Assembly (NCBI GenBank): GCA_030063045.1
Contig: JAQSEB010000019.1
Location: 2,604,001-2,668,000, forward strand
From: Pratylenchus scribneri
Lineage: Eukaryota; Nematoda; Chromadorea; Rhabditida; Pratylenchidae
DNA length: 64,000 nt
Reading direction: 5' to 3'
Each line of letters starts with the position of its first letter. Within the stretch, counting starts at the first letter, position 1. A program made the position numbers and the translations under genes. Below are positions 5,829-6,452 of this stretch, in pieces. A model generated the notes under the pieces. The model ran no database searches and had not been told where the DNA came from. It was given only the letters and a program-made list of their open reading frames with translations.

Positions 5829-6452
5829 CTATTTCACAAATTCAACAATAATCGGATAAATAAATTCAAAAATTTCAAGTGTTTCTTTCTCGCTTCGTCC
5901 TCCGGTAATCACACTTTTCCCTGATGAGAAGAGTAAAACCACACATTTTGTTGTGTTCATTCGTAGGCACATTCCCGGGAAAATTTCTGGATTGAATGAA
6001 CATTGCCTAATCCCTTTTGGTTTTGAAAGGCTATTCAAAAAGATGTAGAGACCTAAATAATTAAATATTTTCCAAAAATTATTTTACATACCTTCCAAAT
6101 TCAATAGGCCTTCAAATTTGAATGATGCCGTCATATTTTGTATCTTGAATTCCTCCTTGACTCGAATATCCGCTTCAGTTACATTCTTAATTAATTCCAT
6201 AAATTTGTTAAGCTGGGAAAGGGATTCTTGTTCAGATTTGGTTCCGACGCACACCAAGCGACCGGTGGAAAAAAACAAGGCTGTCGTTCTTATTGGTTGA
6301 GGCATTCGAATGATCATGGCTGAGAAGCGTTCAGGGCGATAATGAGCATTTGGCAATTTGCTCACAATTGTATGTAAAAATTTTTCTCCGTTAGGTAGAG
6401 CCAAAGATAGGGTAGAAACAATATTTTGGATTATAGGTTTGATTGGAATCAT
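5829..6452 (-). CDS. TATA-binding protein (TBP) homologue carried by the Polinton
   Basis: Two exons on the - strand with one short intron (GTATGT...TTATTTAG, roughly 6034-6093) encode about 185 residues, essentially only the conserved TBP core. Both TBP direct repeats are present. Repeat 1 has IVSTLSLAL, NAHYRPERFSAMIIRM, RTTALFFSTGRLVCVGTKSE and the linker FKIQNM. Repeat 2 has FNPEIFPGMCLRM, VVLLFSSGKSVITGG and IYPIIVEF. These match the TBP signatures NAEYNPKRFAAVIMR, TTALIFSSGKMVCTGAKSE, FKIQN and EPELFPGLIYRM. Phe residues are kept in both LFF/LLF strands that face the DNA minor groove in known TBPs. There is no long N-terminal arm. The gene lies between the polymerase/NADAR side and the PAZ-like gene, well inside the element. 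Its role in element transcription is inference. Confidence 0.88.

What the first reader, a model, noticed from the sequence alone, without database searches (positions are those of the whole stretch)
5829..6452. A Polinton that carries its own TATA-binding protein
Seen: both TBP repeats with strong signatures (NAHYRPERFSAMIIRM, TTALFFSTGRLVCVGTKSE, FNPEIFPGMCLRM, LLFSSGKSVITGG), complete, between the polymerase and capsid genes. Known: TBP homologues occur in some giant DNA viruses, but not in the standard Polinton gene set as far as I know. Inferred: the element makes its own promoter-recognition factor, or competes with the host TBP, giving host-independent control of virion genes.
Basis: partly seen in the sequence, partly recalled or inferred. 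Interest (0 to 1): 0.92.

Follow-up and report, generated by a model that had tools for sequence, protein, structure and literature searches.

The report
Virus-like transposon with own TATA-binding protein
A complete virus-like DNA transposon (a Polinton) in a worm genome carries its own TATA-binding protein, the factor that marks where genes start, next to a stand-alone small-RNA-binding domain, and related gene pairs occur in several plant-parasitic worms.

Summary
Window 5829-6452 (minus) is a two-exon gene for a 194-aa TATA-binding protein (TBP) with both repeats (Pfam 2e-39). It lies in a complete Polinton: C19:2600072-2619653, 19,582 bp, inverted end repeats, 6-bp target duplication, polymerase, integrase, packaging ATPase. 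It is no one-off: 6 of the 7 copies of this family carry it, 53 of 70 TBP places in the genome lie within 20 kb of a Polinton-type ATPase, and relatives of the other Polinton TBPs are multi-copy in Meloidogyne, Heterodera and Globodera. It is no recent host copy (40% identity to host TBP), yet its intron sits at the same codon and phase as one in the host TBP gene: probably an old capture of an animal gene. DNA-contact residues are mostly kept, host-cofactor surfaces are rewritten, selection is purifying. New here: the neighbouring gene is a stand-alone Argonaute-type PAZ-like domain, and PAZ-TBP recurs as a pair, in one lineage followed by thymidine kinase. Most likely the element supplies its own promoter-recognition factor; that step is inferred, and a decoy role is not excluded. 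The searches named in the full report found no report of TBP or PAZ in Polintons, but the main nematode Polinton paper was not held.

The parts
5829..6452 (-). TBP gene (194 aa), exons 6452-6092 and 6052-5829, 39-bp intron 6091-6053, phase 1
6550..7186 (-). stand-alone PAZ-like gene (197 aa), exons 7186-6789 and 6745-6550, 43-bp intron
   Evidence: splice; Pfam PAZ 0.0012, below cut-off for this copy; relatives 1.6e-5 and 3.1e-6, also just below it; 36% identity to the PAZ-only protein of L046; fold of L046
7211..7534 (-). small membrane-protein-like ORF (107 aa, TTG start as listed, so the true start is unsure)
   Evidence: hydrophobic stretches read by eye
7561..8007 (-). protease candidate (adenain/Ulp1-like, weak)
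   Evidence: Peptidase_C5 E 0.024, Peptidase_C48 E 0.14, both under cut-off
8017..9408 (-). major capsid protein candidate (463 aa)
   Evidence: position and length; 40% identical homologue in L024; no Pfam or PDB match
9455..9940 (-). conserved ORF, name unresolved (homologue 29% in L024)
9892..12405 (-). minor capsid protein candidate (837 aa, partial homologue in L024)
   Evidence: function inferred from position
12412..13506 (-). retroviral-type integrase with a C-terminal chromodomain-like match (under cut-off)
   Evidence: rve 1.6e-8, Chromo 8.1e-5
13491..14390 (-). conserved ORF
14390..14743 (-). conserved ORF
14778..15392 (-). packaging ATPase (A32/IVa2 type)
   Evidence: Pox_A32 5.8e-7, Adeno_IVa2 4.1e-5
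447..4600 (+). exons of family B DNA polymerase (approximate span; may continue left of the window)
   Evidence: DNA_pol_B_2 0.0018 on one exon, under cut-off
5177..5748 (+). NADAR-domain gene (second exon about 5512-5748, inferred)
   Evidence: NADAR 7.8e-13
15380..15653 (+). right terminal inverted repeat (about 274 bp, 90% identical to the left one); left copy starts at C19:2600072, outside the window
15654..15659 (.). 6-bp target-site duplication (right copy)
   Evidence: undivided homologous site in L039

Best explanation
This is a genuine gene of an intact, recently mobile nematode Polinton. An animal TBP gene was captured as genomic DNA (intron kept), long before the present copies spread, and has been kept under purifying selection. 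Its product still folds and binds like a TBP, so after the element is activated it sits on TATA-like core promoters upstream of element genes and brings in host RNA polymerase II, while being deaf to much of the host's regulation of TBP because the host-cofactor surfaces have changed. Shown: gene, element, copies, homology, DNA-contact residues mostly kept, cofactor surface altered, purifying selection, spread. Inferred: DNA binding, target promoters, recruitment of host polymerase, escape from host regulators.
For: Element with repeats, target duplication and undivided homologous site. TBP in 6 of 7 family copies; 53 of 70 TBP places in the genome within 20 kb and 46 within 3 kb of a Polinton-type ATPase (my chance estimate for 3 kb is about 0.5% per place). 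Window TBP against human TBP (residue roles and numbering recalled): 4 of 4 DNA-kinking Phe, 2 of 2 Asn, 1 of 2 Thr, 3 of 4 groove Val kept; the TFIIB triplet EEL reads NEI, the TFIIA set ANER reads VNHP, the basic helix H2 has lost most basic residues. Intron in the same Gly codon and phase 1 as in host TBP1, same codon in host TBP2 (host splice sites read by eye). Omega 0.07-0.31 in 10 of 12 copy pairs; the other two are an identical pair and one with 3 changes, 0.56. A Polinton TBP of another lineage (L029) folds as a TBP saddle, pLDDT 94, TM about 0.8 to TBP-DNA complexes. TATATATG lies 25-38 bp upstream of 4 of 10 element genes.
Against: No expression, binding or phenotype data. The promoter motif is weak: some 8-mer shared by 4 or more of 10 upstream pieces arises in 157 of 2000 shuffled sets, and one of the four genes has an unsure start. 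Of the 49 closest sister elements 0 have TBP, and 10 of 20 upstream pieces of elements without TBP have TATA-like sequences, so TBP is not needed for such promoters. Window residue 222 is Val, not Thr. Three of the 6 family copies have a damaged or altered TBP reading frame.
Confidence: 0.6

Rival explanations
1. Decoy or inhibitor: the element's TBP occupies host TATA boxes, or titrates host TFIIB or TFIID parts, and lowers host transcription (including host defence genes) rather than driving element genes.
For: DNA face mostly kept while TFIIB and TFIIA contacts and helix H2 are changed, which could give a TBP that binds DNA but initiates poorly. In the L024/L029 group the TFIIB contacts EEL read DTI in 4 of 6 members (L024, L028, L034, L029), DTQ in L030, DSM in L031.
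Against: One of 3 TFIIB contacts is unchanged in the window protein, and all 3 in the polymerase-linked L011/L017 group. Nothing else tested here separates the two roles.
Confidence: 0.2
2. Passenger gene: a captured host TBP with no benefit, carried by hitch-hiking.
For: 0 of 49 closest sister elements have it; 3 of 6 family copies have damaged or altered frames.
Against: Low omega in 10 of 12 copy pairs from four groups; many lineages and other species with PAZ adjacency in gene models.
Confidence: 0.05
3. Host gene family: the worm has expanded divergent TBPs, and Polintons merely inserted near them, or host genes were domesticated from Polintons.
For: Worm annotations list many such TBPs as ordinary proteins; some could be domesticated.
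Against: In the window family the gene is between the end repeats in 6 of 7 copies at different sites, and the homologous site without the element is undivided. Under 3 kb to a packaging ATPase in 46 of 70 places.
Confidence: 0.03
4. On origin, not function: all Polinton TBPs descend from a single ancient acquisition, diverged fast, and were lost in most lineages, rather than being captured several times.
For: One-clade test does not reject it (p-AU 0.284); PAZ-TBP adjacency is shared by the window lineage and the L024/L029 lineages.
Against: By identity each group is closer to cellular TBP (44, 36, 30% to human for window, L011, L029) than to the others (20-26%). Of the spliced genes read, only the window type has the host-type intron position. 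Branching among the groups is unresolved.
Confidence: 0.4

Closest known systems
Polinton/Maverick elements (nematode and vertebrate)
   Same: Terminal inverted repeats, 6-bp target duplication, family B polymerase, retroviral-type integrase, packaging ATPase, protease and capsid candidates
   Different: Adds TBP, a stand-alone PAZ-like protein and NADAR. [quoted passage not shown] here TBP and PAZ have short introns
TBP of giant viruses (Nucleocytoviricota) and mirusviruses
   Same: A DNA virus coding its own TBP-fold protein; the TBP gene cluster is in 59% of mirusvirus genomes against 0% of Nucleocytoviricota in that comparison (PMC10132985, passages); BFVD holds several giant-virus proteins named TBP
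   Different: Viral structural matches to the L029 model show 7-17% identity in the 50 listed rows (not all of them TBPs), against 24-28% for eukaryotic TBPs. Those viruses are large; this element is under 20 kb
Cellular TBP and its paralogues (TRF3/TBP2, TLF/TRF2; names recalled)
   Same: Two-repeat protein, DNA-contact residues, intron position shared with the host TBP genes
   Different: About 40% identity to the host TBPs, hardly any N-terminal extension, cofactor surfaces changed, carried by a mobile element
PAZ domain of Argonaute
   Same: Fold of the L046 relative (TM 0.74 to human AGO2 PAZ) and signature
   Different: Stands alone (126-aa protein in L046), no MID or PIWI domain

Membership tests
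Polinton/Maverick | terminal inverted repeats and 6-bp target-site duplication | tested here: met
[quoted passage not shown]
   DNA_pol_B_2 0.0018 on one exon, under the curated cut-off; three exons match polymerase exons of related elements. Protein priming not testable
Polinton/Maverick | retroviral-type integrase | tested here: met
   rve 1.6e-8, over cut-off
Polinton/Maverick | A32-type packaging ATPase | tested here: met
   Pox_A32 5.8e-7, over cut-off
Polinton/Maverick | adenovirus-type cysteine protease | tested here: inconclusive
   0.024, under cut-off
Polinton/Maverick | double jelly-roll major capsid and minor capsid protein | tested here: inconclusive
   no Pfam or PDB sequence match; candidates by position and conservation; not folded
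TBP (PF00352) | two repeats, each over the curated cut-off | tested here: met
TBP (PF00352) | saddle fold | tested here: inconclusive
   met for the L029 relative; the window protein was not folded because its spliced form is not a direct translation, which the tool requires
TBP (PF00352) | DNA-kinking Phe and groove residues | tested here: met
   4 of 4 Phe, 2 of 2 Asn, 1 of 2 Thr, 3 of 4 Val; roles and numbering recalled
TBP (PF00352) | binds and bends TATA DNA, recruits TFIIB | not testable with these tools
   needs experiment; 1 of 3 TFIIB contacts unchanged
PAZ domain (PF02170) | sequence match over curated cut-off | tested here: not met
   window copy 19.2 bits against 28.8; L024 and L030 types 25.3 and 27.6. 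Many other matches in the genome are over it, host Argonautes among them. So the window copy is called PAZ-like, by kinship
PAZ domain (PF02170) | Argonaute PAZ fold | tested here: met
   for the L046 relative only: best model pLDDT 85 (the five range 40-85), best hit human AGO2 PAZ E 3.7e-7

The most novel reading that the evidence does not exclude
Worm Polintons carry a two-gene expression module: a private TBP that starts transcription on element promoters while ignoring host TBP regulators, and a free PAZ domain that caps small-RNA 3' ends and so blunts silencing of those transcripts. The pair (with thymidine kinase in one lineage) travels together between elements and species, which would make a 20-kb element partly independent of host control at both ends of gene expression.
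Probability: 0.35. Interest if true: 0.92.

Novelty: new variant of a known kind. Interest (0 to 1): 0.8.

Why it matters
TBP is the hub of eukaryotic transcription start, and viral copies are known from large viruses. Finding it kept under selection in a 20-kb animal element, in several lineages, gives a small setting in which a captured general transcription factor can be studied, with natural TBP variants whose DNA face is mostly kept while cofactor faces are rewritten in different ways. The PAZ partner raises a testable idea on how such elements meet small-RNA silencing. It also warns that many 'TATA-box-binding' and 'PAZ domain' proteins in plant-parasitic worm annotations may belong to mobile elements.

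Tried and rejected
Rejected: recent host copy; chance ORF; a join made by the assembly is unlikely (element ends, duplication and undivided homologous site are clean), though no reads were seen. Led nowhere: three scans of viral contigs with two TBP queries and the capsid candidate gave no relative. Terminal repeats were missed at first because the left end lay outside the pieces searched. One or several captures stayed open. A tree with two archaeal-type rows joined the window TBPs to them at 90/87, unstarred and flagged by the program as long branches meeting; I do not follow it, since identity to them is 25-28% against 39-44% to human and host TBPs. A link between having TBP and a special promoter was not supported: TATA-like sequences also stand upstream in elements without TBP, and the shared 8-mer is not significant when every 8-mer is allowed; the smaller p-values were for a motif picked by eye. 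The genome search with the capsid candidate did not complete, so counts rest on the ATPase. Relatives P0001, P0002, P0003, P0006 were not read in context: no metagenome scan was allowed.

Searches failed on wrong coordinates, on a script error, (first form of this corrected report) on the form of four fields.

Full report
The gene. Minus strand, window 6452-5829, two exons, a 39-bp GT..AG intron (6091-6053), 194 aa, from its own ATG to a stop. PF00352 scores 3.3e-20 for exon 1, 1.3e-17 for exon 2 and 2e-39 spliced. The best solved relative is human TBP, E 3.2e-32 over residues 4-192.

The element. The right end falls at window 15653 and a reversed copy of it starts at C19:2600072, 3,929 bp left of the window. 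The repeats match over about 274 bp at 90% identity; the element is 19,582 bp long and flanked by a 6-bp duplication. A homologous stretch on contig C111 (L039, flanks 84-91% identical in the three long matches) has the undivided site with one copy of those 6 bases. Inside are polymerase exons, an rve integrase, an A32-type ATPase, a weak protease match, capsid candidates by position, and a NADAR gene. No sequence match confirms the capsid candidate.

The insertion site. Exons of an Argonaute-like host gene lie on both sides: on the right with a PAZ match (C19:2619797, E 4.0e-7), on the left by eye only. The duplicated bases contain what reads as the 3' splice site of an intron, so the acceptor is still present at the right junction. 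Whether the gene still works is unknown.

Copies. Seven places in the genome have this family's end repeats. Six have the TBP: C19, C13, C93, C109, C142, C41; the seventh, C145, spans about 5.3 kb and has no TBP match. In the 5 other copies read, the neighbouring genes stand in the same order within the pieces fetched. Window, C13 and C109 have full reading frames of 194-195 aa; C142 reads on to 216 aa; C93 stops early in exon 2; C41 loses the frame in exon 2. The window gene equals the C13 gene but for one missing codon, so the family moved recently.

The genome at large. PF00352 gives 128 exon-level matches, all 140 candidates scored; I merged them by hand into 70 places. 53 of 70 lie within 20 kb of one of 194 Polinton-type ATPase places, 46 within 3 kb. 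By chance a TBP place would lie within 3 kb in about 0.5% of cases (194 x 6 kb in 227 Mb, my estimate). Of the 17 without an ATPase: 5 are host genes (C33, C115, C10:1389259 and C41:1379937, two copies each of two TBP paralogues, for the last; and C10:3118256, TLF-like by eye); 4 are a single-exon TBP near polymerase exons (C131 twice, C181, C142:369839); 4 lie within about 1.1 kb of a contig end (C25 twice, C235, C96); 3 have a PAZ next to them (C112, C95; C80); C179:585233 is unexplained. Conversely 55 of 194 ATPase places have a TBP within 20 kb, 86 a scored PAZ match, 131 at least one. Of the 49 ATPase places most like the window's (65-75% identity), 0 have a TBP within 20 kb and 13 a scored PAZ.

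The partner gene. The ORF next to TBP, once spliced (197 aa), ends in a PAZ-like stretch (Pfam PAZ 0.0012, 19.2 bits, under the 28.8 cut-off). Its counterpart in L024 matches at 1.6e-5 (25.3 bits) and that in L030 at 3.1e-6 (27.6 bits), both also just under the cut-off; the L024 protein matches solved Argonaute-1 PAZ domains at 8.6e-6 (1r4k) and 1.7e-5 (1si2). I held 14 loci of the other ATPase- or contig-end-type TBPs (L022-L034, L036). A strict PAZ signature pattern hit 7 of 14, each beside TBP: L024, L025, L029, L030, L032, L033, L034. L028 has a PAZ match beside its TBP (C33:3125043, under the cut-off), L031 begins with the tail of such a stretch (by eye). L022, L023, L026, L027 and L036 gave none by this pattern, nor did the 4 polymerase-linked loci; the pattern also misses the window's own copy. 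L046, from a Polinton without TBP, codes a 126-aa protein that is only this domain; its model (best pLDDT 85, 3-row alignment, five models 40-85) matches human AGO2 PAZ, TM 0.74, E 3.7e-7. In L029 the TBP is followed by a thymidine kinase (PF00265 4.5e-37); 5 of 9 thymidine-kinase matches in the genome lie directly beside a TBP.

Other worms. A profile of 6 Polinton PAZ proteins found 95 proteins at E 0.001 or better, among them several each of Meloidogyne enterolobii, hapla, incognita, graminicola, Heterodera schachtii, Globodera rostochiensis, and one each of H. trifolii and Aphelenchoides avenae. A profile of 7 Polinton TBPs found 217 (120 listed; only the 7996 best-sharing candidates were scored), among them many of Meloidogyne, Heterodera and Globodera, with cellular TBPs of other organisms lower down. 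Of 11 sequences read, P0123 (M. enterolobii), P0156 (G. pallida), P0133 and P0143 (H. trifolii) join PAZ or a part of it to TBP in one gene model, and P0224 (G. pallida) joins PAZ end, TBP and thymidine-kinase pieces. I take such models as fusions of neighbouring genes by gene callers; the DNA around them was not read, so that these lie in Polintons is inferred. The window-type TBP was found only in unnamed assembled data (sources jgi, lgn, ena): P0001 80%, P0003 60% and P0006 46% identity over about 62% of the query, P0002 45% over 97% (12 hits among 80 candidates); context unread. The source worm is unnamed; 41 full-length SL1 RNA matches, all under the gathering score, with 50 of 98,799 candidates scored, point to a nematode.

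Origin. The window TBP is 44% identical to human, 40% to host TBP1 and 39% to host TBP2, and 26% and 23% to the L011 and L029 types. The window TBPs with P0001, P0002, P0003, P0006 form a group with support 100/98; the relations among this group, the L011 group, the L024/L029 group and cellular TBPs are not resolved, and holding all 15 Polinton-type rows together is not rejected (p-AU 0.284). With two archaeal-type rows in, the window group joined them at 90/87, flagged as long branches meeting. The intron of the window gene lies in the Gly codon after Leu-Glu, phase 1. Host TBP1 has an intron at the same codon and phase, host TBP2 at the same codon (host splice sites read by eye). The reading frames of P0001, P0003 and P0006 end 11, 3 and 5 residues after this codon, as reading into an intron would give. 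I take this as descent from an animal TBP gene captured as DNA.

Function. Compared with human TBP (positions and roles recalled, alignment): 4 of 4 kinking Phe, 2 of 2 Asn, 1 of 2 Thr, 3 of 4 groove Val are kept; of the TFIIB contacts E284, E286, L287 one is unchanged; of the TFIIA set A184, N189, E191, R205 only N189 is; helix H2 QSRLAARKYARVVQK reads ESLSQLNKFMELIKN. The L011 group keeps EEL but changes H2. The L024/L029 group mostly keeps a basic H2 but has changed EEL, has Ser or Thr at groove position 169 in 6 of 6, and Tyr for the fourth Phe in 4 of 6. So DNA contact is largely kept and cofactor contact is changed in different ways. Omega for 12 pairs: one identical pair, one with 3 changes (0.56), the other 10 from 0.07 to 0.31. 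The L029-type model (pLDDT 94) matches TBP structures, 44 hits at E 0.001 or better with TM 0.69-0.82; viral matches have 7-17% identity (50 rows listed).

Promoters. TATATATG occurs 5 times on the coding strand of the in-window part and never on the other; 4 lie 25-38 bp before the listed starts of the ATPase, the next ORF, the capsid candidate and the small ORF (whose start is unsure), the fifth inside a gene (of 11 genes, one with an unsure start was dropped). For this motif shuffles expect 0.04 of 10, but allowing any 8-mer a score of 4 or more arises in 157 of 2000. Of 20 pieces upstream of ATPases in elements without TBP, 10 hold TATATAAA-, TATAAAA- or TATAAATA-type sequences and 6 others TATTTAA-type ones (the last by eye). 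So TATA-like promoters look general in these elements, and own TBP is an addition, not a need.

Literature. Searches: polinton + TATA-binding protein (3 papers), maverick + nematode + TATA-binding (0), polinton + PAZ domain (2), maverick + polinton + nematode + argonaute (7), polinton + meloidogyne (1), at least two of virophage/TATA-binding/polinton/maverick (219, 25 listed, 0 of the 25 with TATA-binding), at least two of TATA-binding protein/cyst nematode/PAZ domain/root-knot nematode (1,513, 15 listed). I saw these listings; passages of PMC10675990 and PMC10132985, PMC11071308, PMC4901422, PMC8097293 and PMC12454879; and term searches without a hit in PMC4028283 and PMC10120064. PMC7786948 and the two papers were not opened. 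TBP is reported in mirusviruses (PMC10132985) and in elements of putative mirusvirus origin in an alga (PMC10675990). I found no report of TBP or PAZ in Polintons; Jeong et al. 2023 on nematode Polintons was not held, so priority is open.

Noticed in passing
window 15654-17000, L038 1-3070, L039: The Polinton sits at what reads as the 3' splice site of an intron of a host Argonaute-like gene; the acceptor sequence is kept at the right junction. A homologous undivided site exists on contig C111.
   Followed up: partly
window 5177-5748: NADAR-domain (YbiA-like) gene inside the Polinton, also present in the 5 other TBP-bearing copies read.
   Followed up: no
L029 858-1400; C42:931925, C93:624102, C116:331981, C28:402025: Thymidine kinase directly beside TBP in one Polinton lineage (5 places); the other 4 matches in the genome are exon-like pieces (C54 twice, C6, C246).
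   Followed up: partly
L009, L010 against L020, L021: The host has two TBP paralogues (68% identical over 163 columns), each on two contigs, besides a TLF-like gene by eye (L035).
   Followed up: partly
L011, L012, L017, L019: Single-exon TBP (169 aa) close to polymerase exons, with no capsid or ATPase match in the pieces read; C131 holds two in opposite orientation 12 kb apart. Element type unresolved.
   Followed up: partly
L047-L064: Conserved upstream boxes before the ATPase differ between Polinton lineages (CTATATAAAATG, TCTATTTAAGCA and GATATTTAAATGATCG types), useful as promoter candidates.
   Followed up: no
G000 as a whole: Heavy Polinton load: 314 first-look ATPase candidates in 227 Mb, 150 of them scored.
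   Followed up: no
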